DNA of 64,000 nucleotides from NCBI GenBank assembly GCA_015146655.1, contig VKHL01000140.1, positions 1-64,000 of the forward strand, in the 5' to 3' direction. Each line of letters opens with the position of its first letter. Within the stretch, counting starts at the first letter, position 1. A program made the position numbers and the translations under genes. The stretch comes from Ochromonas danica. Its lineage: Eukaryota; Sar; Chrysophyceae; Chromulinales; Chromulinaceae. The notes below the pieces were generated by a model. It made no database searches. It was not told the DNA's origin and saw nothing but the letters and a program-made list of their open reading frames with translations. Positions 13,609 through 64,000 of this stretch are shown here, piece by piece.

Positions 13609-13696
13609 TCTTATTAAGTTAATCCATCCATCTTATTAAGTTAATCTTATGGTTAAGTTAATCTTATGGTTAAGTTAATCTTATGGTTAAGTTAAA
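13609..13696. repeat. 17-bp tandem repeat in divergent promoter region
   Basis: About three full copies and partial copies of a 17-bp unit, TAAGTTAATCTTATGGT, preceded by two degenerate copies. It sits between the divergent methyltransferase and kinase genes, within their presumed promoters. Confidence 0.8.
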
Positions 13697-42187: not shown

Positions 42188-42904
42188 TCAAAAACTACCT
42201 TGCTCATCATCACTGTTGCTATAATGAATCGGAGGAAGTGAATCTGCGCCCCGAAATTTGGCGAAGACTCTATCGATTAGGTTCCCTAATTTATGAAATT
42301 CAAAGTCTACTAAATTTCGATGCATTTTACAAACAAAATCAACAATCATATCATTGAAATCTTCATTCATTATTTTTCCTTCCATGAAGTCAGTATATTG
42401 ATTAATAGTTTCGACTTTTAAATACAGCTTCATGGCTGTTACAACGCGTTTTGTCAGGTTAGGCACTTGGTAGTAGTCTGCCAAAGTGTATAAATCAAAG
42501 CAAAGATGGAGGGAATCAATTGCCAAAGAACTAGTGTATAGATATGTCAGAAATTCATTAAAGGCACTGAGGCCGATGGAATGAGTAACTTCTAAGCGAT
42601 CACGTTTTTGTTCTGTCCATGATCCATCGAACATTGTTTTGAAATAGCCGGAGGAAACATAGAGAACAATCTTATGCACTTTAAATTCTTGGACTTCGCC
42701 ATTTCCTTCATAAACCAGAGTAAAGTCACTAAACTTTTTACTTTCTAGAGCAGTATAAAATTTGCTTTTAGTGGCGGCACTTTTAGAAGGGTCACCGGAT
42801 ATTTCACGCCTGCCAGATTGTTTAGCAGGATTATATTGATGTTGTTGACCAGGAGGATGTGGAAATGCAGGATGTGGTCCAGGAAATGGAGGTGGAAAAT
42901 TCAT
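42188..42904 (-). CDS. BTB/POZ domain protein
   Basis: Single exon of 238 residues starting at ATG 42904, with no earlier ATG in frame. A Pro/His/Gly-rich N-terminal segment of about 50 residues precedes a BTB domain. The domain has Phe-Ser-Asp-Phe-Thr-Leu-Val, Phe-Lys-Val-His-Lys-Ile-Val-Leu, Ser-Gly-Tyr-Phe-Lys-Thr-Met-Phe and Phe-Leu-Thr-Tyr-Leu-Tyr-Thr. A BACK-like helical tail and an acidic C-terminus follow. BTB proteins dimerise and often serve as Cullin-3 adaptors; the substrate partner is not evident. Confidence 0.85.
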   Translation of the reverse strand: MNFPPPFPGPHPAFPHPPGQQHQYNPAKQSGRREISGDPSKSAATKSKFYTALESKKFSDFTLVYEGNGEVQEFKVHKIVLYVSSGYFKTMFDGSWTEQKRDRLEVTHSIGLSAFNEFLTYLYTSSLAIDSLHLCFDLYTLADYYQVPNLTKRVVTAMKLYLKVETINQYTDFMEGKIMNEDFNDMIVDFVCKMHRNLVDFEFHKLGNLIDRVFAKFRGADSLPPIHYSNSDDEQGSF

Positions 42905-43118
42905 GTTGTCAAATTCAATTTTTCTTTCTTGTGGACACAAAGTTGCGACTCTTCGTCTTGTGAGATTGATTTGGATTTCCTTTGTGAGATGGATTTGTCG
43001 GCTGTGGCTGTGGCTGTGGCTGTGGCTGTGGCTGTGGCTCTGCTGGCGTTGCTTGTGGAGGGGGGAAACTCGCCCGTTAACTTAATATGGGGTCGAGGGC
43101 TAAGGTTTTGAAAACCCT

Positions 43119-43587: not shown

Positions 43588-46500
43588 CTAAAGAAGACCT
43601 AATAATGGATCTGACTCTGTCAAGATGGCTTGTGCAGCTTCCCCAGAGAGTGAGATATGCTTATGCAGTTCCTTCGTTGGCAAGGAAATAGGCAATTTGC
43701 CTTGTTGCGCTAGAGCGACATCAGGTGGTAAACGAATCTTGAAGCGAAGAACGGCACTTTTCCCCGCCAGATATGTTCGCCCAGGTCGATGAGAAGGCGA
43801 TCTCGTCATTGGAGAAGAAGAGGATTGTGTAGTTGTCATTCTTTGATCCGTCTTCCTGACAGGTGACATGGAGCCCATCACATTGCCTTTGAATGATGTC
43901 CCCAACAGGTTGTCATTGGCATCGAGAGTTGAGGATTTCCTTCGAGAATCAAGTAAATCCATGCGTTTGAGTAGATTGATAAAAGGGCCAGGTATACGAT
44001 GTCCTTCACCTTCACGCTCAATTTTATCTCTCCATTGACGAGGATAGTTTCTTTTGATTGCCTGTTTGATGAGTTGCCGTTCCTCTAATAGCCTCTTGAT
44101 TATGTCTTCATCTTCACCATCATTACTGAAGCGATGGATTCGATCAGCTAAATCATCCAACTGACAGCTCCAGACACGATAGATAAAGACAAGTGCTTCG
44201 TCAATATTGATTGATTTGCTTCCATCTGTGTCGAGAACATGAAATGCCTGATAGACCAACTTCTTGTCAACAGTATTTCCCAACACTAATCGCAACAAAC
44301 TACAGAACTCTGAGACAGATACATCACCTGATCCATTACTATCAAAGCTTGAAAAGATTTCCTTGACAGTAAACTGAGCCTTTCTCAACGTATCACATAA
44401 TCTATAGAGAATTTTCGTGAGAGCGCCAATCGGTTGTGTGGAGTCTGTAAGATCAACTGTCTGCACACCTTCGCGTTGCTCAAACTCGCTGAGATCTCCA
44501 AAGAAGCTCTTGAACTCATTCAAATCAATATCTCCACTGCGCTTGTAGTCTAACTTTGTCCACATCGAATCGAATTGACTCCATTCCATCTGCACACGAA
44601 GTAAGCTCTCCAGTCCACCATGTAGTTTTAATCGAGTTAGTTTGCTATTACCTCCAAGCCAATGAGCATCATTGTTCTGCTGATTGACAAGGGCTTCGAA
44701 GATGAGAGCTACTCGATCTTTTGGTTGGTCAGATTGCTCCATGGATAGGAAGGGTGGAGGTGGAGTAGTCAAAGCAGGTAGTGTCATATCAACTACCGCG
44801 TCATCGAGCTCTTCCTTCCCTTCTTCTTCTATTAAATCCTCATAAGGAGGAGGCTCCACTTCTTCAAGCTGCTCTTCTAGCTTCATATCGTCATCTTCAC
44901 CCAATACAGCATCATATGGTGGAGGATCGTTGTCTTCAGGATAGGGTTCATCCGTGTTGAAGGAAGTGTTGGAATGTCTGGATCGAGTCAGAAGTCTGTC
45001 TCTCACCAAGAGATCTTCATCCTGCATTAGTTGACGCTTTGCATTGATTTCTTCAACTTCAAGCAACCAAGAAGAGACTTTAAACATGGCTCCTTTGACA
45101 ATAGCTAAGACTTCATCACTCGACGCATTGATCGGCACTTTTCGAATCACAGCATCCATTGGTGTGACCTCTTTGGCAATCAACTTGGACATTGTCTTCT
45201 GATAACTTCGTGATCCTTCTTTATCTTTCTTCTCTTGTTCTGACCAAAGGTCTTCTAATTCAGATCGTGGCTTACCAGTATATTCAAAACTCCAAGTGCT
45301 ATTCTTCTTATTAATGGCTGCTTGCTTTTTCTTTTCTTCTCGTCTAGTTTGTGCCATTAAACTTTCCAATTGAGTTCTTTTCAATGCAGCATTACTTTCA
45401 ACAATATCTCCAAAGATAGTCTTGGGCGGAGGAAGTTTTCGAGGTCGAGCTTTCACCGTTTCTTTGGCTTGCTTTTGTTTCTTTTCTTCTTCTTTGGCTT
45501 CTTCCAATCTTTTCCTTTTCTCTTCTTCTTGTTTAACCCTTTCTTCACGTTTCTTACGAACAAAGTCATCATAACGTTCTTGTTGACTTTTTAATGCTTC
45601 AATACCTGCGAGTAACTTCTTGAAATGTAATTCATCTGTCACATGGAAGTGCTTATCAATGACTTCTTTGTCAACATATCTCAGTAGCATTGGTCCATCA
45701 ATGGATGCTTTAACAAAAGAATCTAGATAGTATGGTAACTCCACTTGATATGCTAACCAATTCTGGGCATGAATAGTCTTCCATTTCTTGATATTCTTAG
45801 GTAATTGTACCTGAGCTAGTGTATCCATAGTTGTTAATGATAATGTATTGGTTTTATCAGCTTCTCGTTGATTGGCTGACAAAGTTCTGGCCATCTTGTC
45901 CAGAGCAGATTTTAGGTCTTTATTTTGCTTTTGTAATGCTTCCATCATCTCTTTTCGATCATTTGATAACTCCTGTTATATTGTATTTAGAAGATTAGTT
46001 TCCAATTTAGTCAAAAAATGCAAGCATTCATTGATATCATATCATACCTGTAAGATCTCTTTTCGAAACTCTGTTTCTAATTTAGCTACCTCTGTTTTGA
46101 CCATTGCCTTTTGATCCTTTGCGCTGAGATTAGCGGATGGATTGGTTGATATGGGCTCTGCAATGGTTGACTTCTGTGTCCATTCTTCAATGACTGCTTT
46201 GTCAGTTGTAAATCGCAATCGTAAAGAAATCTTCCCCGAGAGATTTCCTTTATTATGTAGAGGATGCTGTACATCCTGCCATGCACCTTGACCATCAACA
46301 ACCATCCCCAATGGAATAGTTGCTTCACCTAATATCTGCTCACCAGTTAATCCAGGAGAAACAACTTGAACTTTCAATCCCTGCCTTTGTAGATGTGCAG
46401 CTACAATACCATTCAATTCCCATTTCAAATTCCACTTCGCATTCGAGCCAGCAGCTTTGTTAATGGGGGTCACTTTGTTCCATGATTGAACATTTATCTT

Positions 46501-49500
46501 CACTGCCACATCTTGTTTGGTGATCCAATTCGTGGTCGATAGATCAGATACTTCACAATCTGCAATTTGTAATTGACCAATCACATTAGCAAAATTAGCT
46601 TGTGTTGTATCTTGATCACTTTTAATGGCCGGCGCAGTAGGAATAGGTGAAGTTGCAATCTTGATATCTAGCCTTCCACAAGACCGTCCTCTACCATCCT
46701 TGAGTTGAACAGGATAAATAGTAGCTTTTTCATTGATAGCAGATCCCATTTTACGCATAGATATGTCTCCTTTAGCTAACAGTCCATCAGATGTCAACGA
46801 GTTCTTATCCATCACTGTCACCTTCAAACGCTTGAACTTGAACAGATCTTTTGTAATCAAGAACTCAATATCCAAAGGCTCCCAACAAATGTCACGATTG
46901 ACATTCGAGCTAACACCAGTGCGAGCAATTAGATCTGGACAATCCTCGACTTGTAAAACTACATAGGGGTCTGGTTTTTGATCTAATAGTCCAGTGCCAG
47001 AAGCTTTGATATCAACGATTGTCATTCCCAGCACTTTCACCAGTGCGTGTTCCAGAGTTACAACAGATTCCGGCAATGCTTCAGACAATGCACCAGGTTC
47101 ACTCTTTGACAGAAGAACAGTGATTACTCCTTCTCCAACTATTGCACCATTTTGATCAGAAATAGGGAATGGAATTTCTGTTCTCTCTCCAAATCGTGTG
47201 CATGCACTTCGCACAGAGATATTGCTCTTCCCGAGCAAGACATCTCGTCGACCAGCATTTTCATCATGGAAGCTGATTTTTAATTCTGAAGAGCGTAGAA
47301 TCTCTTCATTTACCTCAGCTGATAACTGTAGATTAGGCCATAGAGGATTACTTCCGGCATTGTTTAGAGTTGGAGTAGTTTCTTTCCAAGCTCCTAACTC
47401 CAATTTGGCAAATGGATCCTATAAGAAAGCAAAGTTATTCTTGATATCTGGATAGATTCAAATAGATAGACAACACTTTACCTGCTTGCCGATAATCTCA
47501 GTATTCTTCAAACCTTTCGCTTTCAATGCAAGGATTTGGAGGGTCCCCACTTTGAAATCTTTGGGAAGACCAAGATCTACAATCACTTTGTCTTGACGCT
47601 TTTCCAATTGACCTCGAAGCGCGATCTCTCCAACCGTCTTACCCTTTGAACCAAGTAATGTTGCGGTCACATTGACGTCTGATCCCAATTTCGCGGCAAA
47701 CTTGATAATCTTGGCCTTCACCGACCCCAACTTCCGATCGGAAGTAACTTGATTAGAATCCATGATATCTATGGCCACATCTCCAGTACGAGCAGTTTGA
47801 TTGTCAACAGGAAATTCGAAATCAAGATTATCCCAATTAGGATTTCCACCTCGATTGTTGAGAACTGATGTTTTCTTGACAATACCATTGACAGCAAGAA
47901 TAGCAAAGGGATCGACTTTACCTAGACCAAGGAACTCACTGGAAGCCATTCCAAATACGGATATCTGCTTTATTCGCAAGATCCCCTCTACAAAGTCATC
48001 TGGGATTCCAACGGACTGCTGAGGAATTGATAGTTGACAATGTATCTTTATTTTGCCACTGACAGCATTTTTGGAATCATAGACAAGAATTGGCAACACT
48101 AACTCTTTATCTAGATAATTCGTACATTTCACTAGTGAGACTTTTCCTGATCCAATTAATGCATTAGCACGGGTTGTATTCTCATCGAACACAGATAACG
48201 TCAGCTCGGACGACTCTACCATATTACGATACAAGTCGATTTGATAAGGCAAATTATCCCAACAAGCTTGACTTCCAGCGTTTTCTTGAGTGAAGGTCTT
48301 AGCTTGCCATTGATCCCCAAGAGACAGAACAACAAATGGATCCTGTTTCCCTAATACTTCAGTATTTTTCAATTTGAATGCTTCTATTTTTGTAATAGAA
48401 AGAACACCGTATTGGAAAGTCTCAGGCAACTGATAGACTTTGTCCGCTTCATCCCGTTCTAGTTTAACCAGAATCTCAATATTCCCAGCAGCTTTATTCT
48501 TCGAATCAAGTAAGTCACCTCGTAAGATAATTTCAGAATCAATACTCTTTGCAGCTCTAATCACTTTCGTCGCACCTTTTCCTATTAACTCGTCTTTGAC
48601 GGTTCCTTTACAAAACACAGAAATATTCAAAAGTCCTTTCATCAAATCTTCCGCTTTTATGGGGATAGACATATCAAGCGAGTTCCAACTACAATCTGTC
48701 CCTCCATTCTCAATCACTAACGTTCGGCTCTTCCAATCAGCAAAGGAAAGCTCACAATAAGGGTCCTGCACATTTCCCAATGCACCACCAAAAAGGGAGG
48801 TATTCTTCAATCCGTGTGTTGATATTCGCACAATATCTAACCAACCCGAAATGAAATCGGAAGGGACAACTATCTTTTCGTCAAGTCTTAGCTCTTCCTC
48901 TACGGACGGAGGTGGGACGACAAGCTTCATGAATAGGAGCACTCTGCCAGCTTGATCTCCAGTTTGAGTGAATAGCTTGATAGGAAACTGATATTCATGA
49001 TCTAACTCATTGCATCGTCGAAGCATAAATTTACCCTTCCCGATTAAACGATCTCCAGTATTATTTTGATCCCATGCTTCTACCATAACCTCTTCACTTG
49101 AAAGAGATGTAATAGAAATAATCGTCTTCAACGCAAGATTATCAAACACTACATCATCACCCCCATTTACTTTCACTGGTGTTTTCTCTTTCCAGCTGCC
49201 CATATTTAATATTATAAATGGATCTTGCTTTCCAATCCATTCCGTATTCTTCAAACTGTATGTTGCAATACGAAATACATGCAGTTGTACTTCGGTCATG
49301 CCTTGAGGAAAACGCGGTGCAGCTGATTCTTCTATCTTGTAAGCGCAAGCTCTAATTTCAATTTCACCAGAACGCTTGCCCTTCTGATCAGTCAGCGGCT
49401 GAGACAAAATAATCTCCTTGCCTGCTGATACCGCCAACCTCTTCAAAGAGAACTTAGTTTTGCCAATGATAACATTGTTCCTCATTGTATTCTTATCATA

Positions 49501-52500
49501 AACCACAACATCAAGGCTTTCATTGACCAGCTCCTCGGTAGATGTTTCTGTTTTGAAAGTCAAGGCATTCCAAACAACTTCCGAGCCTGCATTTGATAAC
49601 GGGGCTGTTTGATCCTCCCAACCAACAAATGATAAAGAAACAAAAGGATCAGCCTTGCCAATCCACTCCTTGTTGACCAAATTCTTAAGACATACCGAAG
49701 AGATTTGTAACTCCGCTAATTTAAAATCTATTCTATTGTCGATGTCCTCATTGGTAGGGACCTTAGATTGCTTCTGATCTGCAGGAAAGACAACCAGATC
49801 AATCTCAACTACACCAGCAGCTTTCTGGGTTTTATTATGAAGTAATGTACAAGTGAGGGTTGTAACTTTTCCCATTTTTGAGCCTGCGAGGAGCAAATCA
49901 GAGATATCTGCGGACGCTTTGGGAACATCTCGATCAAACAAAGTTACTTTTAGGGGTTGGAGAAGAGTATCAACTTTCATGATTGGTGATTCCATCTCCA
50001 AAGACGTCCACTTCGGAGATTTGCCTTTCCCTTCTGATGTTACATCAGCCCAATCAGCAAAGGAAAGTCCGATTTTACATGCTGGAGCGCTAATCATATT
50101 GCCTGCAGCGACATCTTTGCAAACAATATTATTGACTTTCAAGAAAATTTCTGGAACATTAGTTGGCAAAGCAAGTTTCGACGGCTCGATATTGGGAACA
50201 AGAGAAGCGAATATGGTTATTCTGCCTCTGACATCTCCTTTTGGGCCCAGAACATTCTGACTGATGGAAGAAATCTTATCACATTCCGAGCAACATTTTC
50301 GTATATCAATTGTTCCTGACCCTATAAGACTATCACCTCTGATCGTATTATCATCAAATATAGTTGCAATTAAACGATCATTTATCAAACCATCCTTTGT
50401 GACTGGAATTTGGATATTAATGTCATTCCAATCACAATCTCCACCTGCATTATTGAGTGTCGCTGTCCTGCTTTTCCAGTCTTTCAATGCTAAGCTGACA
50501 TATGGGTCCTGCTTACCAAGCCACTCAGTATTCTTGAGACCATTAACAGTGATTCGCTTAATAACAAAATTGCCAGTCGAAAACGATTCCGGAAGAATTG
50601 GCTCTCTATCCCGTTGCTGCTTTGTTGCTTCATCTACCAACATCACGAACAAAACTAGTCTACCCGCTGCAGCACCCTTTTTCGCTATATCTATCGTGAT
50701 AATAGCCTCTTGTCCAATCTTATTAAAGCATTGCTTCAGATCACATGTTCCTGCACCAATACTACTTTTCCCCAGCATTCCACTTGTGCATAGTTCAGCC
50801 CACAAGGTAGTTGTGGGTAATTCGCTCCCTAAGACCGGAAGAGCACAATCTAAGTTATCAATCACCGGTTGTTTTGTGGATCCCAAATCAACCACTGGAG
50901 AAGTGAACTCCCAGGCGGATGAACGAAGATTGACAAGGATGTTCTTGCCTTCAATGCCAGAAACATCTTGAGCTCTAATTCGCATAATCCTTAACTCTCC
51001 ACGCTTGAAAGATTCAGGCAACTTTAACTCTTCCATCTTGTTAGCCAACGGCATGAGCCTTAGCGATATTACGACACGACCAGATTCCTTTCCCTTGTCA
51101 TTCTTCAACTGGATTGGTAACATTTGGTCTTGATCTGCAACATTCATTAGGGATGCCAATGATATAGTGCCTTTACCGATGGGTTTATCGCTGAGCATCG
51201 AGTTCCTGTCCATAACAACAACTTCCAACTGCTCGAACTCCAAGATATCTCGCGTAACATCAAACGTTCTACCTAAATTATCAAACACAACATTTGAACC
51301 TCCTTCCTCAATAGCTTCTGTTTTGAACTGAGACGTTCCCAAACGCAAAACAACGTAAGGATCATTCTTTCCACCCAAGGCTTCGACATTATCAAGATTT
51401 TCACATGCAATCCGCGAAACAAGGAGGGAACCAGCCTGAAATATCGACTGTGCACCCCCTGGTTTGCTATTACCGCCTGGAAAGGCGTTCGCTGTCGCTG
51501 CAGATAAACTCTCTCCATCACGTACTGGATAGATCTCAACCGATATTGTTGCCTCACCTACGCCCTTCCCCTTATTATTGTCTTCCAACAGTGCCACCTT
51601 GAATGTTACCACACCGCTTTGCATGCTCTTGATCTGATCGGCGGTAAGTGTTAAGCTGCCTTTGCCGATCAACGTGTGTGCCTTCATATTGTTGTGATCA
51701 TAGGCTTGAACCTGCCATGATAACCCTGACAGCTCCTTCGCAGTTGTCGGCATCATAGCCTTCGCGTCATTCGACTCATAGCTCCACTCTGCATGCTTAT
51801 CCGAGTTATCGATATAGGCCGTTACAAGCTTCCACTTCGACCCCACTGCGATGTCCAGAAACAGATCGTTCTTATCGAACATCATCGTCTCGACGTTCTT
51901 CGTCACGTCGACGACAGCTTTACGAATATGCAATGTGATCGGATCTTCAGATAAGGTGCTCGCAGATTGTGTTGATGAGGATGGGGGATCTGTTGAAGCA
52001 GGTTCAGCACTGCCTTTCACTATCCCGCTCGCTGCTTGTTGTGGTGGTGTTGCTGAAAATGGCCTGCACTCAACCGATATTGTTGCCTCGCCTACGCTCT
52101 TCTTACCATCTTCCAACAGTGCCACCTTGAATGTTACCACACCGCTTTGCATGCTCTTGATCTGATCGGCGGTAAGTGTTAAGCTGCCTTTGCCGATCAA
52201 CGTGTGTGCCTTCATATTGTTGTGATCATAGGCTTGAACCTGCCATGATAACCCTGACAGCTCCTTCGCAGTTGTCGGCATCATAGCCTTCGCGTCATTC
52301 GACTCATAGCTCCACTCTGCATGCTTATCCGAGTTATCGATATAGGCCGTTACAAGCTTCCACTTCGACCCCACTGCGATGTCCAGAAACAGATCGTTCT
52401 TATCGAACATCATCGTCTCGACGTTCTTCGTCACGTCGACGACAGCTTTACGAATATGCAATGTGATCGGATCTTCAGATAAGGTGCTCGCAGATTGTGT

Positions 52501-55092
52501 TGATGAGGATGGGGGATCTGTTGAAGCAGGTTCAGCACTGCCTTTCACTATCCCGCTCGCTGCTTGTTGTGGTGGTGTTGCTGAAAATGGCCTGCACTCA
52601 ACCGATATTGTTGCCTCGCCTACGCTCTTCTTACCATCTTCCAACAGTGCCACCTTGAATGTTACCACACCGCTTTGCATGCTCTTGATCTGATCGGCGG
52701 TAAGTGTTAAGCTGCCTTTGCCGATCAACGTGTGTGCCTTCATATTGTTGTGATCATAGGCTTGAACCTGCCATGATAACCCTGACAGCTCCTTCGCAGT
52801 TGTCGGCATCATAGCCTTCGCGTCATTCGACTCATAGCTCCACTCTGCATGCTTATCCGAGTTATCGATATAGGCCGTTACAAGCTTCCACTTCGACCCC
52901 ACTGCGATGTCCAGAAACAGATCGTTCTTATCGAACATCATCGTCTCGACGTTCTTCGTCACGTCGACGACAGCTTTACGAATATGCAATGTGATCGGAT
53001 CTTCAGATAAGGTGCTCGCAGATTGTGTTGATGAGGATGGGGGATCTGTTGAAGCAGGTTCAGCACTGCCTTTCACTATCCCGCTCGCTGCTTGTTGTGG
53101 TGGTGTTGCTGAAAATGGCCTGCACTCAACCGATATTGTTGCCTCGCCTACGCCCTTCCCCTTATTATTGCCTTCCAACAGTGCCACCTTGAATGTTACC
53201 ACACCGCTTTGCATGCTCTTGATCTGATCGGCGGTAAGTGTTAAGCTGCCTTTGCCGATCAACGTGTGTGCCTTCATATTGTTGTGATCATAGGCTTGAA
53301 CCTGCCATGATAACCCTGACAGCTCCTTCGCAGTTGTCGGCATCATAGCCTTCGCGTCATTCGACTCATAGCTCCACTCTGCATGCTTATCCGAGTTATC
53401 GATATAGGCCGTTACAAGCTTCCACTTCGACCCCACTGCGATGTCCAGAAACAGATCGTTCTTATCGAACATCATCGTCTCGACGTTCTTCGTCACGTCG
53501 ACGACAGCTTTACGAATATGCAATGTGATCGGATCATCAGATAAGGTGCTCGCAGATTGTGCTGATGAGGGTAGGGGATCTGTTGAAGCAGGTTCAGCAC
53601 TGCCTTTCACCTTCCTACTAGCAGTTTCTTTCTGGAGATCATTATCTTGTTCGCTTTCGGAGGGTTTCGTACCTTCTTTTATCGACGATTTGGATTCTGC
53701 ATTTTCCTTCGCGTTTGCAGGTATGAACTGCGAAGGTTGTGCAGCCACGGTTGCTGGAACTGACACAGATGGGGTAGCTGAAAATGGCCTGCACTCAACC
53801 GATATTGTTGCCTCACCTACGCCCTTCCCCTTATTATTGTCTTCCAACAGTGCCACCTTGAATGTTACCACACCGCTTTGCATGCTCTTGATCTGATCGG
53901 CGGTAAGTGTTAAGCTGCCTTTGCCGATCAACGTGTGTGCCTTCATATTGTTGTGATCATAGGCTTGAACCTGCCATGATAACCCTGACAGCTCCTTCGC
54001 AGTTGTCGGCATCATAGCCTTCGCGTCATTCGACTCATAGCTCCACTCTGCATGCTTATCCGAGTTATCGATATAGGCCGTTACAAGCTTCCACTTCGAC
54101 CCCACTGCGATGTCCAGAAACAGATCGTTCTTATCGAACATCATCGTCTCGACGTTCTTCGTCACGTCGACGACAGCTTTACGAATATGCAATGTGATCG
54201 GATCATCTTTTAAATCAGCTAGCAGGGTTAATTGGGGAGGTGCTGTTATAGATTCTGATGGGGGTGTCGAAACAGATAAAGCCTTCTTTGATTCCGTTGT
54301 AGCTTCTGGTTTAGTTGATGCCTGTGTGGTTTGCGATTCATTTTTCTTGGCCGTCTCTGATTCATTGCCCAACTTACTTCCAGCACCTTGAGAGCCTTCT
54401 GCATTCATCGACACAGCAGAGGAACTCGGAATTGCACTGGGAGGAGGTGCAGTTTCTTTGCTCGATGTCCTCGATGGCTCCTTCGCTGGTTCTGCAGGTA
54501 CAGCAGGAGTTGAACTCTCTTTTGAAACGACGACTGATTCAGAAGCAACCTTATCAGCCTTCGTTGCACTTAAAGCAGGCCCACTTTCGCCCTTCGTAGC
54601 AGTAACATTTGAGATATTGCTTGCCGTAGACGTGGTGGTAGTGGCAGGAGAGACGGATTTACACTCAACCGATATTGTTGCCTCGCCTACGCCCTTCCCC
54701 TTATTATTGCCTTCCAACAGTGCCACCTTGAATGTTACCACACCGCTTTGCATGCTCTTGATCTGATCGGCGGTAAGTGTTAAGCTGCCTTTGCCGATCA
54801 ACGTGTGTGCCTTCATATTGTTGTGATCATAGGCTTGAACCTGCCATGATAACCCTGACAGCTCCTTCGCAGTTGTCGGCATCATAGCCTTCGCGTCATT
54901 CGACTCATAGCTCCACTCTGCATGCTTATCCGAGTTATCGATATAGGCCGTTACAAGCTTCCACTTCGACCCCACTGCGATGTCCAGAAACAGATCGTTC
55001 TTATCGAACATCATCGTCTCGACGTTCTTCGTCACGTCGACGACAGCTTTACGAATATGCAATGTGATCGGATCATCAGGAGAATTGCTCAT
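43588..55092 (-). CDS. Giant multi-C2 domain protein with SAM-like domain and EF-hands (3788 aa)
   Basis: Exons 47482-55092, 46048-47418 and 43588-45972 (introns 63 and 75 nt) join exactly in frame to 3788 residues. From the N-terminus there are six nearly identical C2-like domains of about 135 residues separated by Ser/Thr/Ala/Pro linkers. About twelve diverged C2-like domains follow, most opening with Leu-Lys-Asn-Thr-Glu-x-x-Gly-Lys-Gln-Asp-Pro-Phe/Tyr. Then come a coiled coil, a SAM-like domain (near 45650-45800), a Lys/Glu-rich helix, an acidic Pro-rich linker and two or three EF-hands (for example Asp-Ser-Asn-Gly-Ser-Gly-Asp). A Ser-rich basic tail ends the protein. Several C2 domains keep Asp-Pro and Asp-x-Asn calcium-loop residues, whereas the six N-terminal copies lack the Asp-Pro. 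No transmembrane segment is seen. A calcium-dependent membrane or cytoskeletal scaffold is likely. I know no standard family with this order. Confidence 0.88.
51536..55080 (-). repeat. Six near-identical ~410-bp coding repeats (C2-like array)
   Basis: An anchor site within the unit recurs at 51851, 52379, 52907, 53441, 54110 and 54980, giving spacings of 528, 528, 534, 669 and 870 bp. The domain-coding part is almost invariant at DNA level, including third codon positions. Length differences lie in the linkers, and the last three units also share the linker. The main variation is a short Gly-Asn-Asn-Lys-Gly-Lys versus Asp-Gly-Lys-Lys-Ser segment near the domain end. Confidence 0.93.
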
Positions 55093-55379: not shown

Positions 55380-58300
55380 TTAGAACGATGTGTTACTCCA
55401 ATCTTGCATGGAGTTTTCGGTCTCTTGGACCAATCCATCTCTTTCCCTCATTTCTCGAAAACTTTGCCATTTCTTTCTTTTGGCGAGGTAAAGATCAGGT
55501 TCGCTATACTTTTGAAGCCTAAGAATTCGCATGTAGAGGGTAATGGTTTTGACAGCCTCGATGACAGAGGCAGGCAGGTGAGGCTTAAAAGCTGCTGTGA
55601 TCCTGCCATGCCCTGAAGCTATGCTCACATGCAAAGGTGTCAATCCTGCTTCATCTTCTGTTGTTAAATGTGCTCCAATAAGGTTAATCCACAGCAGCGC
55701 GAGCTCGGTCAGCCCCCTTCGGCAGATTACATGCAGCAATGTCTCTCCATTTGCCAATAAGTTGGAAGTCAAAGATGATATCGAAACCAAGTAATCAACC
55801 GATTCTTCATCTCTTGCTCCTCGCTTATTGTTGGACTGAACGAGATAATTGAAAAGGATGCATAGATGGCCCTCTGTAGCAAGTCCTCGACAAACTCCCT
55901 TGACCAATACCTCTCGGCAACTAACTTTATCAAGAGGACGGTAGTAGCCAAGTAAGCTAACATCATTGGCTATATCAAAAACCACCTTTAATGCCTTTTC
56001 TGTATGACTGCATTGAACTAACTGATCTAATTGGAGGTTGGAAGAACTTTGACACAAACTGCCAGACAGAAGTGTGAACCATAAGGCTGCTCTCAACGAA
56101 TTTCCTTCCAGCTTTTCACCATCACGCCCTTGTTCCTTCTTACCCAAACTCTCCTTTTCTTCGACCAATGCATTCCTAATTCCACTATCAAGAGCTTCCA
56201 AAATATCCCCAAATCCATATACACACGCCATTGCTATGAGTGTTAACAGTTGTTTAACGTGTGGTGCGGTTGTTTCAGCTTGATTTGTTGCAGCCAAATC
56301 CGCAGCTTGATAGAGGACACTTTTCGGAAAGAACTTGTCAAATAGCATTTCCACCAAGCAACCATCGCCTGACCTGGCAGCTAACTCAATTGCATTGAAC
56401 CCTTCACCAAAGTTGATTTCTTCAACAGATTGATATTCTACAGAAGCTACTTGAAAGTGATTTTGAATGGGACAGGATTTCCAGAACGATCCGTCTTTTC
56501 TCAGAGATGGTGGCAAGGTTGTACTAGATGATAGGCCAAGGCAGACGACATCCTGAACAAGTGATTGACGAAGATGTGTTGATGATATGAACAAAACCTT
56601 GGCTGGTATAGGAGGAAGAAAACGATGAAGATCATCTTGAATCTTGCCATGAGATATCCAAAACACATCTTCCAGTTCTGGAAGAAGTAAATGATTTTGT
56701 AAAGTCCATCTTTTAGAAAAGATATTGCGAGAGAGAAGATGCTTTTGAAGAAGATTCAAAACCTCATTCCCGTGGGCCTCAACCAATTGCTGACATTTGT
56801 TGTGACAACTCCCCAATTTCGACGCCAGCCCCAGCATAGCTAGCCAGTGCACACTGAATCTCATGTCTACTGTCTCTGAAGTAGTCAGCGCAGGATGCTG
56901 GCTATCAATATTACATCTATGATAAATGCTTGAAAGTAAAGGCCAGGCTTCTTTCAAAACAACAAGATCTAAACAACTTAGAGAGTCACAACGAGGAGAA
57001 AAGACGGGAAAATCTTGAGTGAGAAGGAGTTGAATGCACTCTGTGTAATTCTGGCGAACTGCATTCAGCTCGCTGATAGAGAGAACAACATTTCTCGCAG
57101 AGGGCATTGCGAGTAACGTATGAAAGATCAAAGTCTTATGAAGTGTCATTTTGGTTGATTCCAGTAACATTGTCTCATCGACTTTTTCGTAAGGTCGAAA
57201 TAAAGCCTTGAGTAACTTTGAATCACCTCTCAGAGCAGCCATTTCAACTAGACTGAGAGGAGAAGATTTATTCAAGGAGGAGTTTACTGAATATCCCAGT
57301 TGTACTAACAACGTCGCACATGCAGTTCGTTCATGATCATTTACCTTACCTTTGCGACCATTTATTTTGCCCTCCCATTCAAAATCAACAAGAGTAAGCA
57401 ATGGCTGAGCATGAGTGCTGTAATCTCCATTAGATATTGACTCTTTGGCACTTCTCAATAGAAGTGAGATATCTTCTTGTAATGAGCCTGTCGAACCTTT
57501 TAACAGTAAGCCATATATAGCACAAAGCAGCCAATAGAGTCTACTGGCGGTGAGAAGTGCGCTATATAGAGATTTCTCTCCATTCAACATCATTTGCTCC
57601 CTTCTAGATAGTTGTAACTTCGTTTCCGTGACGAATAATTGATCTCCAGGAAGCTCTTCAATACTCTCAAATACATTGTACAGATGCTTGAGCTCCTCAC
57701 TTGTTGGTGTCAATGTAACACCTTCTCTCAAATCATTAATAGTTTGCTGCCAAGCACTGTCCTTTTCACTTTTCGACCTGGAGGAATATCCCTCTTTTGA
57801 CTCTTCGAAACACGGAGAAATACCATCAAAGTATTTGCGAAATCGTTTGTATTTCTCTTTTATAACAGGTGAGTCAACAGGATGAAGAAAATCGTCGACG
57901 TAAAATGCTTGCAACATAGTTAAAAGCTCAGCACAAGTGTCAGACGAATCATTTAGGCGAGCAAAAGATGTTGCTGACCAACCCGCATTTGAAGAGGTTG
58001 GAGATATTAGAGGCGACGGCTTGTTTGGAGAGGGTGGGACAACTAAACCGGATGGAACAAGATTATGAGATCCACTTTGAGCTTGTATGGTCATTCGACA
58101 AACAACCTCACTGAGGCTGGGATGACCAAGATCAAGCAATAACGAAGCTAACCCTTGTGCGATCACTTGGCGTAATTTGTTTAACCTCTCACTATACATA
58201 GAATTGAACCGAAAGAAAAGACGCAGCTGATCAGCTGAAAGACCATCCATAATGGCAATGCGCTGATGCATTCCAACAGAAGGTTTTGCGGGCCCTACCA

Positions 58301-61300
58301 CTTGGCCATCCCCAGAACTGTGCTTGTATACTGCTTTCCCTTGTAATGCTGACAATAGTCGTCTTTTCTCTCCCAGCAAGAATGAATAATCCTGCTGTTC
58401 TCTGTAGAGAGGATGAGGTTTATTTTGGAAATACTTGGCTCGAACCTCCTCAATAGTGGAAGACGATGACGGTGACGAAGGAAGCATTGTTTCTTGAGTC
58501 ACTACCAGCAAAGTACGAGCTAAACAAAGAGCACGGGCAAGGTCTAAAATAAGATAGGCTGTGTCCAGAGCACAAGTCAGACCCTTTCGATCAACGGTAC
58601 GCATCCCACCACTCCCCAAAAGCGTAGAAGGAAGAGCACCAGCATACACACTGGCAGCTAACTCCGTTTCAATCACTTGAAGAAGATCATATTGCTGATC
58701 TCTACTCATCCAGTCCAAGTTTGTTTGATACTTGTAGACATCATAGCTTTCCAACAAAGGTCGTAACGCAGGATTCTCCGATGATTTCAAATTATCTATC
58801 TTCTTATTTGCAACGACTACCTTGGACTTGCAGCACTTCTTCAGATATTGTGATACACTCAAACCAGAACTACCTAATGAAACACAAGTCATCCACAAGC
58901 AGTGCCACGAGAGAAATCCATCAATGGCCGCTGAGGGAAGATGTTGCTTGTTGGTCTTTGCCTTATATTGATCTCCATGTTTTTGATCAGACAAGCTCAG
59001 ACGCAATCGAAAGAAACCACAAATTATCTGCTTCAGTTGCGCATGGCTATACTTGGAGATATTCTGACATAGAAGAAGAGCGTCGCCCGCTTGAGTAGCT
59101 CCACCTAACTTCTCCGAGGTATCATCAACATCCCTCGATTCTCCTTTAACTTCATCAGATCCCTGTTCCCTCATACTCCCTTTCGGTGAAGGAGTACCAC
59201 TCATTAATTCTAGCTTTCCCTCTTCTTGTGACTTTTGTTCATCCTCTTTAGTTGAAGGGCAGCAAAGAGATGAAAATGGCATGTTGAGCAAAGAAAGAAC
59301 TTGTCTCGCACGAACAAAGACATCAAGTTTGCTGTAAGCTTCTGCCATAGAATATTGAAGAAAATAACTGATGTTTTCATTCATTATCATTGGATTCTTT
59401 TTCATCCACTTTGGCTGAATTCGCGCCTCTGTCAGTAGATTGTAGATATACTGGGAATATTGTAGAATCAGATTAAGCAAGATCATGGGATCTGTCAGAT
59501 CGACCTCAGATTTCTCTTTGCGAATTATGATTTGACTTAAAATCTCTTGAAAAGACAAGAATCTACTTGTCCCGAGGAAAACTTCTGAGGTTAGATGATA
59601 CTCTCTGGCTTTTCCTAGCAGATCGATACGGTGGTGAGGGGATTTACGAAGACTTGCCAACGCATCTTTGTATTTACACAGAACAATACCATCAATATCA
59701 AAGAGATAAGTTGTTGAGAAAAGCTGCTCTTGGATGGAATTCCTTGTAATGAGATACTCATAAAGACCATCAATCTTCTTGTCTTTAGGCCGTAACACAA
59801 CCAAATCACCACCATAACTGTTCTGTACTTCACATTTTCCTTCTGATTGAAGATAAGCTACAGCTTGTTTCAAAATTTGATTAGAAAAGCGATAATATCG
59901 TTTCTTCAGCATGTACAATATGGGGGGATAACCATTCTCATCTAAGGAAAAGGACATTCTGGCAGCAATGGACATCACTCCATTCTCAGCTTGTGATCGG
60001 TTTTGGAATGGAAGGAATATTGCTTCTTGAAATAACAAGACTTCCAATAAATCCATGTAATCTTGTTCCTCAAGAAGATCACTGCTTTCTTTTCTTACCA
60101 AGACATGCATTATACAGTGTATTAGATGATAATGCAGGTTCAATTGAATAGATGGCAATGCCCGAACAAGATTATTTACATTATTGACAATTTTATTGAC
60201 AAAAATATAGTTTCCATCCATCATTCTAATACGCATATCTCTAGAGAGATTGATTTGACTCATAGTTGATAGATTTGTTTTGGTATCATAATGAGACTGG
60301 GAATGACCTGCAACAGTCTTCTTCATGATATGATGTCCATAGGCTGCCATAAACCGATTAAGATTATTGTAGAAATTGCCATTATCACTTGTTTTACTAT
60401 TGTTATACAAAGTGGAGTGCCAATAGGAGGACACTAGGCAAGTAGTGGCAGTGTAGAAGAGTGACTGCATTCTGCTCATTTGTTTCTGTGGCTTTATGAT
60501 AGATCCGACATCAGATATTTTAGCACTTTTATCAAGCGAGCTTAAAATAGACGGAATGAAAAAGGTATGATAAATATTTTCAATACTATTTATAAACCCT
60601 AAGGCAATATCATAGAGTTGACAATTCTCCACTAGACGAACGAAACTAAGTAAAGGGATAGTAAATAAAGGAAAGGTTGAACAAAAAGAGGTAAGAAAAT
60701 CATAATGGCGATGATAAAGAGCAAAATGAACCGGTGTGATTAGCTCGATAGTCTCTACGCCCTCCTCTAAAATCTCTTTCCAATGCATTGGATGGTTTTG
60801 AAGATAGCCACCCCAACAAGTCCCATAGTAATCATCTTGCAATAGATTACTTTGGTATCTCTTCAAGATATCTGAATAATCTTCAAATGCATGATTCTTT
60901 ATGACAAGACTGCCGAAATGTGACATGAAATTATAATTAACATGATATTCATCAACCGAAGGCATCACGACACCACCACTGGCTGGCACCACCAAATCAT
61001 GTCGATTACTAAAACCTCCATTACTCTCGCTTTTCGAATCATTGCCATCGGTAGTGATGTTATGGCTGCTCATATCTGAGGAGGTATTGTAAATAGTACT
61101 GGCCTGATTGTAAGCAGAATACAAGGTCAAGATATTCTTCGCTGCTCGATAACATCGCATCGCTGAGAGAGGTAAGAGATAACGCAATAAACTCTCTCTG
61201 ATTCTACTATGCATTGCATAGAGATTGTTGCCAGAAGAATGCATATGAGAGAAAAGGAAGCGATTGGCATCTATTAATTTGCAAACGATATCCTCCAGCA

Positions 61301-64000
61301 TGATGGCGTAGCTATTACTCTTCTCACTTTGCTCATAACTTGCCACATGAATAGCAGTTTTCTCATTTGCTTGTGACTTCCACTGGAAATCAACCATACT
61401 ATTAAATGACAAACCCAAGAAGAACGAAGAATAGCGAAAGTGTTCCAAACGTGAGATCGATTGACTAATAGTTTTGTAACCTTCTTGTCCAACCACAATT
61501 CCTTCCAAAAACGATGACAGTAGATTGTACGACATATCAGGAGGAGAGTTGAAGTAGTCATAATACCGCACATACTCAATATCATGGTATGCTGCAAGGG
61601 CGACTAACCAATCCCGATATAACATGTTAGATCTAATACTTTGAAACCAACTGCTTGATGATAATTTCTCTTCAACGGTAGATTCAATCCTCACACGATT
61701 TGGTTCTACTGTACGTTGACAAGAATCTTGGAACAGTTTGTCCTCTTCTTCGTATTCGTACCATAGTCTTCCTTCTTCTACAATCAATTTAAGAAATTGA
61801 TCAAATACTGTATAAACATATGATATGGAGTTCTCTCCTTCATAAATATTCTGCTTTGTGATCTTATCAGCTTTTTTCCCGCCATCTCCTTTCGACTGGA
61901 AGGTAGCCAACAAATGAGGATCTTGAACACAATGTCGAAGGTATTGCCACTGCTCTCTAGATAACCCTCTATCCATGGCATATGGGTCCATTTCATTCCC
62001 ACTAAATGGTCTCTTACGAAGTTGCAAAAGTTTCTCCATGGCAGCAGTAAATGTAGCTTTGTTCTTCATTATACCTGTAATAAGCTTTTCAAAAGCTCTC
62101 CATGTTAAGGATTCAGTCTCTCCATCAATTCGCTTCCTTCCACCCTTTCCATCTTCAACAACATCGAACAAGGTTATCATAGCATAACCCAACTTTTGCC
62201 ACGCCAAAGAAGGAATGAATTTATCACTACCACGAATGATTCTCCTACAAATAGCAGTTCACACAATTCGATGGCACGATGAAAACTACCGAGGAATGAA
62301 GAATCTAATATTTCATACCTGAGACCCACTCGCAAATCGTAACTTCGAAGCTTTAGCACGTCATTCATCTCTACCCACTGTCTAGCCAAGCATTGATTGG
62401 CAAGAAAACTATCATAACAACGATCATTCGAATTAACTAGAAACTTGATCAATACACTGGTAGCAAACGTATTATCAATACGCGCTAACAACTGAGTTTG
62501 AAGCTTAGAGCTCAGAAAGTTGTTCTGCTTTGCGGTTCGTTCAACAAACAAGTCGATGGAATGTGGGCGATGACCTAGATGCCACTGCAATGAGTCCTTG
62601 AACGAATGGAGATGAATGCCTTGTAAAAAGAATGACAAGATATCAAGATGCAGTGCTTTTTTCCGGCGATTGCTGAAGAATCTACGGTAAGAAGTGTGAT
62701 CTACATTATCAGTGTTGCTCTTGTGGGATGATGGTAATGGCGGCAAGGGATCCATGTTGCATGGAATACCCTCACGACAAAGCCATTTCTCTCGTAAATT
62801 GGCAAGAAAGTAATCAAACACACTGGGATGGCCTTTCACTACAGGAAGATGGCAGTCTAAGTAAGAGTAAAGCCAGCTACATAAACAAATAACAAGCTCA
62901 CCTCTCATAAAACATAAACGAGAAAACTCTTCCACGCCCAAACCTTCTCTGAGTGCTTCCAAACAGCCCAGTTGATCGTGAATAGCAGCTTGCAAGATAG
63001 CCATTCGATAATTGGCTTTTAATATGTTAGTCTCAAAGTGTATGCAATTCATAGATACGAACTTCAGCAATACCTTCAAACAGAGCTTATTTCCCAAGAC
63101 AGCGGCTAATGAAAGCAATGAAAAGTCCTCTATTATTTCGCGAATTGTAGCATCAGATGACAAAAAGGCAAAATGTTGTTTCATGAAGTCTTCCAAAGAA
63201 AAAGCAGATCCATCCTTCGAATCCAACTGACTTTTGGTCGACAAAGATTGGTTGGCTTTGGAAGCACTACCAGGCGCTTGCGCTTGCCTCTTGGTTGGAG
63301 ATCGATTAAAAGCATTGATGCGACTGATAACACGCTCAACATCAAAGGCCGTCTCTCCAACCTTGTCAACTTGCGTCACCAAAGGAAACACAAAATCCAC
63401 CGGAAGCTTCTTAAGCATGGCATTCAAAATGCGGTCTTCCTCTTGAAATACGGCCAAATATAAACATAATTTCCAAGGGATAAAATCAACGGCTGGAAGC
63501 GGAAAGTGAGAAGAAGATAACGAGGAATGGGTGTTGTCCTCACAATCCAGAAGAAGAGAAACGTGATCGATAGCCCACCAAACAGCAGTTGAATTATGAG
63601 CATAGATGCCCGAAATAACCATGACTGAGTATATTTCCCAATGTAACTGCTTTGGAAAACTTGTGTAAATGGGTTGACAACACTTAAGAAGTTCCAGCAG
63701 TTGATGGTAGAAATGATTCTGTCGACTTCGGATACACCGAACCAAAGCATCTAACAGCACCGGGTAATCCTGCATTGCACTATCACGTGATATTGAATTC
63801 TTCATCCATTCACAGACAGCATAGCCCAGATCTCGATTAGGGAAAAGTAGGCAAATTGCTAATCCACTGCAAAAACGATGATAACTGCAGTTGGCAAAGA
63901 GATACCGACAATCTTCTAGTGGTAACAAGAACTTGATAGTGTGACTAACTTGGCGAAAATCAATCTCCGATTTTTGAGAAAAGGTTGCTAATGTATGCAG
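55380..64000 (-). CDS. Giant helical-repeat protein with ankyrin repeats (5' end beyond window)
   Basis: Exon 62319 to the right edge and exon 55380-62244 join across a 74-nt intron (62245-62318) in frame. The frame is still open at 64000, so the visible 2848 residues are a minimum. A Met near 63928 would be a TTG and is not a start. Most of the protein is alpha-helical solenoid without a signature I recognise. Scattered ankyrin-like units appear (Ala-Ala-Leu-Arg-Gly-Asp-Ser-Lys-Leu-Leu, Glu-Leu-Ala-Ala-Arg-Ser-Gly-Asp), and two clear ankyrin repeats lie near the C-terminus (Gly-Glu-Thr-Leu-Leu-His and Gly-Leu-Thr-Pro-Leu-His). No membrane segment is obvious. It ends 287 bp upstream of the multi-C2 gene on the same strand. 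Confidence 0.8.

What the first reader, a model, noticed from the sequence alone, without database searches (positions are those of the whole stretch)
43588..55092. An unusual 3788-residue Ca2+-type scaffold: ~18 C2-like domains, SAM and EF-hands in one chain
Three exons splice without any phase conflict into one protein. It combines six identical-looking and about twelve diverged C2-like domains with a coiled coil, a SAM-like domain and EF-hands. Known multi-C2 proteins (ferlins, synaptotagmin-like proteins, MCTPs) have 2-8 C2 domains and membrane anchors; this one has far more and no membrane segment. It could be a long calcium-responsive tether or a cortical/flagellar scaffold.
Basis: partly seen in the sequence, partly recalled or inferred. 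Interest (0 to 1): 0.78.

Follow-up and report, generated by a model that had tools for sequence, protein, structure and literature searches.

The report
Giant eighteen-C2-domain calcium-type scaffold protein
A probably photosynthetic, flagellated microbe carries one very long gene whose protein strings eighteen C2-type modules (six sharing an identical DNA stretch) ahead of coiled-coil, SAM-like and EF-hand parts with no membrane anchor seen, so it looks like an unusually long soluble calcium and membrane tether.

Summary
Three minus-strand exons (47482-55092, 46048-47418, 43588-45972) join through two phase-0 GT-AG introns into a 3788-residue frame. An own-sequence profile finds 18 C2-like units. 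Twelve are diverged with short linkers. Six N-terminal ones share 364 identical nucleotides, silent sites included, with linkers of 37-149 residues between them. Pfam C2 misses the six-fold unit, but a profile of the other twelve finds it (46.8 bits; best of 1000 shuffles 10.5), and its model (pLDDT 91) matches solved C2 domains. EF-hands are clear. SAM is just under Pfam's cut-off, with support from a relative in the genome. No membrane segment was seen. Ferlin membership is not met. Fourteen of 18 units keep Asp/Asn at three Ca2+-loop positions. Two of the three closest C2s in the genome lie in 'C2 then EF-hands' frames, so this may be an inflated relative of an ordinary design. I take it as a soluble, avidity-based Ca2+/lipid tether or scaffold; the flagellar reading is possible but untested. 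No eukaryote collection could be searched for relatives.

The parts
47482..55092 (-). exon 1 (2537 codons): six identical-type and nine diverged C2 units plus the first part of the 16th unit
   Evidence: open frame and ATG at 55092; own-profile hits
47419..47481 (-). intron 1, 63 nt, GT-AG, phase 0, inside the 16th C2 unit
   Evidence: C2 profile runs across it
46048..47418 (-). exon 2 (457 codons): rest of the 16th C2 unit, 17th and 18th units, start of the helical coil
45973..46047 (-). intron 2, 75 nt, GT-AG, phase 0
43588..45972 (-). exon 3 (794 codons and stop): helical coil, SAM-like domain, helical coil, EF-hands, low-complexity tail
54682..55080 (-). C2 unit 1, residues 5-137 (identical type)
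53812..54210 (-). C2 unit 2, residues 295-427 (identical type)
53143..53541 (-). C2 unit 3, residues 518-650 (identical type)
52615..53007 (-). C2 unit 4, residues 696-826 (identical type)
52087..52479 (-). C2 unit 5, residues 872-1002 (identical type)
51553..51951 (-). C2 unit 6, residues 1048-1180 (identical type; structure modelled on 51523-51957)
47482..51453 (-). exon-1 portion of the diverged C2 block (units 7-15 and the start of 16, residues 1214-2537; linkers 7-18 residues)
46231..47418 (-). exon-2 portion of the diverged C2 block (rest of unit 16, units 17 and 18, residues 2538-2933)
45589..45786 (-). SAM-like domain, exon-3 residues 63-128
   Evidence: SAM_1 21.4 bits, E 3.2e-4, under the cut-off of 23; relative on C14
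44173..44583 (-). EF-hand region, about exon-3 residues 464-600
   Evidence: EF-hand_1 three stretches, E 4.5e-14; calmodulin and troponin C matches

Best explanation
One intact gene encodes a soluble 3788-residue scaffold with three zones. (1) A flexible N-terminal zone has six near-identical C2 units on long linkers. (2) A compact block has twelve diverged C2 units with short linkers. (3) The C-terminal part is helical coil, SAM-like domain, helical coil and EF-hands. Most likely the many individually weak, Ca2+- and lipid-responsive C2 units act together by avidity to hold two membranes, or a membrane and the cytoskeleton, while the coil/SAM part self-associates and the EF-hands give a second Ca2+ input. 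The zone of six arose by very recent tandem amplification or gene conversion. Shown by sequence or model: gene structure, C2 folds, EF-hands, identity of the copies, no membrane segment seen. Inferred: splicing at intron 2, linker flexibility, Ca2+ and lipid binding, oligomerisation, tethering.
For: Frame and splice sites; 18 own-profile units; each of the 12 diverged units is recovered by a profile of the other 11 (32.6 to 137.3 bits) and the six-fold unit by a profile of the 12 (46.8 bits); model of the six-fold unit pLDDT 91.2, pTM 0.85, with 154 PDB matches at E<=0.001, the 50 rows seen being nearly all named as C2 domains or proteins that I know to hold one; profile matches to myoferlin, synaptotagmin, rabphilin and cPLA2 C2 domains; Asp/Asn at three Ca2+-loop positions in 14 of 18 units (the meaning of these positions is recalled); EF-hands; linkers; two of the three nearest C2s in the genome sit in frames where EF-hands follow C2.
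Against: No transcript or protein evidence. Intron 2 rests on splice signals and frame only. No relative outside the genome was found to test conservation (collections of viruses and prokaryotes only). Four of 18 units have lost at least one of the three positions, and the third is Asn rather than Asp in all 14 that keep them. Unit net charges run from -5 to +3, the six-fold type -2 to -4, which does not favour binding of acidic lipids without Ca2+. The exon-3 model is poor (pLDDT 43.9). The EF-hand part is not specially close to that of the C2-EF frames. The nearest C2 by whole-exon search (C137) has no EF-hand link that I tested.
Confidence: 0.5

Rival explanations
1. A flagellar or basal-body scaffold: the C2 block works mainly as a protein-protein or microtubule-membrane ruler at the flagellum, with Ca2+ input from EF-hands.
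For: The genome has a Radial_spoke match (177 bits), so the organism is probably flagellate; fold match 7 is a chain of an entry titled 'Ciliary tip central pair' and CEP120 C2C is at ranks 32, 34 and 47; passages of PMC11642885 describe a Tetrahymena ciliary-tip C2 protein and suggest that it may bridge microtubules and membrane (that this is the matched chain is my inference); C2 units with lost Ca2+ positions fit structural use.
Against: These matches are no better than those to Itchy, ferlin, E-Syt and other C2 domains; no flagellum-specific domain was seen.
Confidence: 0.2
2. A rigid structural rod: C2 folds are reused as beta-sandwich spacers, without Ca2+ or lipid binding, as immunoglobulin folds are in titin (comparison recalled).
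For: Twelve units with 7-18 residue linkers; 4 of 18 units lack at least one Ca2+-loop position; unit charges of -5 to +3.
Against: 14 of 18 units keep the three loop positions although the diverged units are only 15-25% identical to the six-fold unit; the six freshly copied units all keep them.
Confidence: 0.2
3. Two or three neighbouring genes rather than one: the coil/SAM/EF part (exon 3) is separate from the C2 array.
For: Stop codons follow in frame soon after both exon ends; no transcripts were available.
Against: Both introns have GT-AG ends, phase 0 and low G+C; intron 1 lies inside a C2 motif and the profile crosses it; exon 3 opens directly with predicted helix, as the end of exon 2 would continue.
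Confidence: 0.06
4. The number of identical copies is an assembly artefact.
For: 364 identical nt in six copies and two 528-nt spacings are hard to assemble.
Against: Linkers after copies 1, 2 and 6 differ in length and sequence from those after copies 3-5, which anchors several copies, though linker 2 shares both its ends with them; the whole stays in frame; another gene of the genome shows 8 identical repeats, though that could share the same weakness.
Confidence: 0.08

Closest known systems
Ferlins (myoferlin, dysferlin, otoferlin)
   Same: Many C2 domains in one cytosolic chain; best profile match of the C2 units in the PDB is myoferlin; proposed membrane tethering by several C2 domains (passages of PMC12264198).
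   Different: Ferlins have 5-7, up to eight, C2 domains, FerI/FerB and a C-terminal membrane anchor (passages of PMC2923515 and PMC12264198); no Fer family and no anchor was seen here.
Extended synaptotagmins and MCTPs
   Same: Tandem C2 domains used as tethers (recalled); the units match E-Syt and MCTP2 domains.
   Different: Few C2 domains, SMP or C-terminal membrane regions (recalled); no such Pfam family at E<=1 and no membrane segment here.
C2-then-EF-hand frames of the same genome (contigs C12 and C1)
   Same: C2 domain(s) followed by EF-hands; two of the three nearest C2s to this array by whole-exon search, and the two best outside matches of the diverged-unit profile among the fetched frames.
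   Different: One Pfam C2 (C12) or two in adjacent frames (C1; that these form one gene is inferred), a proline-rich front, no SAM hit, and EF-hands not specially similar.
Zebrafish pclob (Piccolo with 16 zinc fingers)
   Same: One module of a long scaffold multiplied within a gene; the author proposes unequal crossing-over (passages of PMC3484663).
   Different: Zinc fingers on separate, diverged exons; here C2 units within one exon, identical over 364 nt.

Membership tests
C2 domain superfamily | C2 profile match (12 diverged units) | tested here: met
   Pfam C2, 7 stretches in exon 1 and 3 in exon 2; 9 of 13 units scanned singly at E<=1 (the 13 include two of the identical type, the first of them with no match); leave-one-out 12 of 12. 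So not every unit reaches Pfam alone.
C2 domain superfamily | C2 fold of the six identical-type units | tested here: met
   Pfam: 0 families, but profile of the 12 siblings 46.8 bits, model pLDDT 91.2, PDB fold matches with query TM-scores of 0.46-0.72. The alignment used for the model held sibling C2 units.
C2 domain superfamily | Ca2+-binding loop residues | tested here: inconclusive
   three positions Asp/Asn in 14 of 18 units, the third Asn in all 14; binding untested; ligand positions recalled
Ferlin | 5-8 tandem C2 domains | tested here: not met
   18 units; range from passages of PMC2923515 and PMC12264198
Ferlin | FerI and FerB | tested here: not met
   no Fer family among Pfam hits at E<=1
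Ferlin | C-terminal transmembrane segment | tested here: not met
   best 19-residue hydropathy mean 1.54, at residue 2656, not at the C-terminus
E-Syt / MCTP / synaptotagmin | membrane anchor (and SMP domain in E-Syt) | tested here: not met
   defining features recalled
SAM domain | SAM profile above Pfam cut-off | tested here: inconclusive
   21.4 bits against 23; 34% identical, E 2.0e-6, to a stretch in a frame with SAM_1 57.9 bits
EF-hand | EF-hand profile above cut-off | tested here: met
   EF-hand_1 51.3 bits against 25.4, 3 stretches

The most novel reading that the evidence does not exclude
A new kind of giant soluble 'C2 fibre': a long chain of 18 C2 units, with a fast-changing array of near-identical flexible C2 heads and a SAM/EF-hand base, whose reach and Ca2+ sensitivity are tuned by copy-number change of one C2 module.
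Probability: 0.22. Interest if true: 0.7.

Novelty: new variant of a known kind. Interest (0 to 1): 0.47.

Why it matters
In the paper passages seen here the largest number of C2 domains given for one chain was eight (ferlins), and those proteins are membrane anchored. An 18-unit soluble chain with six units sharing an identical 364-nt stretch would extend what C2 domains are known to be used for, and offers a natural experiment in how copy number of a weak lipid-binding module changes avidity. It also shows that a curated profile can miss a C2 module (the six-fold unit) that a family-internal profile and a structure model find.

Tried and rejected
Structure of exon 3 from its single sequence: mean pLDDT 43.9, not usable for SAM or EF-hands. 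Relatives elsewhere: viral contigs with exon 3 and with 47482-51459, and genome contigs with 47482-51459, gave 32, 1 and 24 pattern matches and no relative; these collections are of viruses and prokaryotes. Paper searches for proteins with many C2 domains, or for C2 with SAM and EF-hand, listed ferlins, otoferlin and unrelated work. One search listed only 20 of 44 papers, so its count terms were repeated (with one added): one paper, on Siglec-1, whose '16 C2 domains' are, as I recall, immunoglobulin-type. Only listings and abstract starts were seen, except passages of PMC2923515, PMC11642885, PMC12264198 and PMC3484663. Ferlin membership was considered and rejected. Weak off-target hits (Hsp33, GTP-bdg_N, FlgA, colicin Z, LolB, XopAW) were set aside: they have no stretch passing on its own or lie far under the curated cut-off (GTP-bdg_N is 0.5 bits over its cut-off with no stretch passing; XopAW, 28.1 bits against 120, lies on the EF-hands). 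The domain tree (midpoint rooted) has low support at many nodes: 12 of the 13 window units in it group together (0.81) but unit 18 falls outside. It used one of the six identical-type copies, and 11 outside C2 domains that passed a profile filter, from 9 of 14 loci scanned. The 5749-codon frame on C85 was checked as a relative: it has at least three Pfam C2 matches of its own, so this is not the only giant frame with several C2 domains in the genome, but they score only 3.7 bits with the own profile and stand with GAF, so I did not take it as a relative.
Full report
WHAT IS THERE. On the minus strand three stop-free exons, 47482-55092, 46048-47418 and 43588-45972, join through GT-AG introns of 63 and 75 nt, both phase 0, into an 11367-nt frame of 3788 codons plus stop. 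The first ATG is at 55092; the open frame begins only 18 nt further up. The longest stop-free run in 60 mononucleotide shuffles of the window was 283 codons, against 2550 in the first exon, so the frame is not chance. The first intron cuts a C2 unit after GKQ; the next exon starts with DPF, and GKQDPF or GKQDPY recurs in three other units. A C2 profile search of the genome aligned straight across that intron. The second intron is supported by splice signals, phase and low G+C (0.25), not by homology.

C2 UNITS. Pfam C2 gives 7 stretches in exon 1 and 3 in exon 2. A profile seeded with four units of the protein and iterated on it gives 18 units, each at a domain E of 5.8e-32 or better (these E-values are inflated because the members trained the profile). 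The honest test is leave-one-out: each of the 12 diverged units is found by a profile of the other 11, with 32.6 to 137.3 bits, and the six-fold unit by a profile of the 12 with 46.8 bits, E 3.5e-13, while the best of 1000 shuffles of it has 10.5 bits. Its AlphaFold2 model, made with an alignment of 13 units of the protein, has mean pLDDT 91.2 and pTM 0.85 and is all beta apart from two short helices. Foldseek gives 154 PDB matches at E<=0.001; the 50 rows shown start with C2 domains of Itchy, dysferlin, plant and trypanosome E-Syt and myoferlin, with query TM-scores of 0.46-0.72. A few rows (for example 9nw3_3A and 4xoh_C) are not named as C2 in the output.

TWO ZONES. The linkers after units 1-6 have 149, 82, 37, 37, 37 and 25 residues, the first five visibly rich in Ser, Thr, Ala and Pro; those between units 7 and 18 have 7 to 18 (counted from 8 residues past each profile match). 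Over 364 nt, third codon positions included, the six copies do not differ at all; a DNA search of the genome found these six and no others (counts are lower bounds). Some pairs share longer tracts: 411 nt for copies 2 and 6, 418 for 1 and 3, and 517 to 1045 among copies 4-6, which lie in tandem. The linkers after copies 3-5 read alike; linker 2 shares both its ends with them but has a different middle, and linkers 1 and 6 differ. That pattern calls for very recent amplification or ongoing conversion. It is not unique in this genome: contig C41 has a 2624-codon frame with eight exact EF-hand repeats of 330 nt (only exact copies were counted).

CALCIUM. In loop 1 the Asp of the DP[YF]-like motif and in loop 3 a D-x-N pattern are present together in 14 of 18 units (the six copies and units 7, 9, 11, 12, 14, 15, 16, 17); units 8, 10, 13 and 18 miss at least one (13 rows; the other four copies and unit 16 read). 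That these are Ca2+ ligand positions is recalled knowledge, as is the canonical set of five acidic ligands. Because the pattern holds fewer acids than that set, I expect weak or partial Ca2+ binding.

C-TERMINAL PART. Exon 3 starts with a predicted helix (block pLDDT 72-81 for the first 30 residues), has another with block pLDDT 73-86 over residues 141-170, and a poor model elsewhere. SAM_1 scores 21.4 bits, under its cut-off of 23. A stretch on contig C14 that is 34% identical there, E 2.0e-6, lies in a frame that scores 57.9 bits for SAM_1, so the SAM assignment is likely. EF-hand_1 has three stretches, E 4.5e-14, with calmodulin and troponin C the best solved relatives. No stretch is hydrophobic enough for a membrane segment.

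ORGANISM. The genome (31.19 Mb, 337 contigs) holds 47 light-harvesting matches; one of them, searched in the PDB, is nearest to chains named LHCI, XLH, VCPI and fucoxanthin chlorophyll protein (the organisms are not named in the output). It has a Radial_spoke match of 177 bits and a silicon-transporter match of 46.1 bits, over the cut-off of 26.8 (one control genome also gave a match, under the cut-off). A photosynthetic flagellate, probably a stramenopile, fits; the ribosomal RNA search did not complete.

RELATIVES. By whole-exon search the nearest C2 domains elsewhere in the genome lie on C137, C12 and C1, in this order; with the diverged-unit profile the order among the fetched frames is C12, C1, C137. 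C12 has one C2 followed by six EF-hand_1 stretches; C1 has a C2 in one frame and, in the next, a C2 followed by EF-hands (one gene by inference). The C12 domain aligns to several units of the array at E 3e-9 and weaker. In a small tree 12 of the 13 window units used form one group with support 0.81 and a C1 domain is next to it, unit 18 falls elsewhere, and inner nodes are weak. EF-hands of C12 and C1 are not specially close to those here. My reading, inferred, is that the array grew mostly by copying within the gene from a C2 of this kind. Against uniqueness: a 5749-codon frame on C85 has at least three C2 matches of another sort.

FUNCTION. I commit to a soluble Ca2+/lipid tether that works by avidity, with a self-associating coil/SAM base and an EF-hand sensor (0.5). 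A flagellar scaffold and a purely structural rod stand at 0.2 each. Ferlins are the best comparison in action but not in membership: C2 number (5-7, up to 8), FerI, FerB and a C-terminal anchor mark that family (passages of PMC2923515 and PMC12264198), and number, Fer domains and anchor were tested here and not met.

NOVELTY. Nine paper searches listed no protein with this many C2 domains or this combination that I could see; they cover open-licence PubMed Central only, most listings were cut, and no protein database of eukaryotes could be searched, so relatives may well be annotated there. I call it a new variant of a known kind.

Noticed in passing
own genome contig C41:69786-77657 (-) (L033, L034): 2624-codon frame with eight exact 110-residue EF-hand repeats, 0 differences over 330 nt each; the neighbouring frame C41:77620-78861 reads to me as a coiled coil with an RPGRIP1-like C2 (name recalled, not tested).
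   Followed up: partly
own genome contig C85:37145-54391 (-) (L026-L028): 5749-codon uninterrupted frame with at least three C2 matches and GAF.
   Followed up: partly
own genome contigs C12:286245-288671 and C1:388521-392239 (L036, L037): Proline-rich front, C2 domain(s), then EF-hands: a shorter C2-EF design whose C2s are among the nearest to the window array.
   Followed up: partly
own genome contig C224:8673-16382: Four light-harvesting matches of the same score at a spacing of 2407 nt, perhaps another recent tandem array.
   Followed up: no
window 55380-62258 (-): 2292-codon frame with ankyrin repeats near its end, directly upstream of the giant gene, 287 nt before its ATG.
   Followed up: no
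window 42188-43081 (-): BTB/POZ frame downstream (63.2 bits) with a perfect GGCTGT repeat at 43000-43039.
   Followed up: no
window 13636-13695: 3.5 perfect copies of a 17-nt unit.
   Followed up: no
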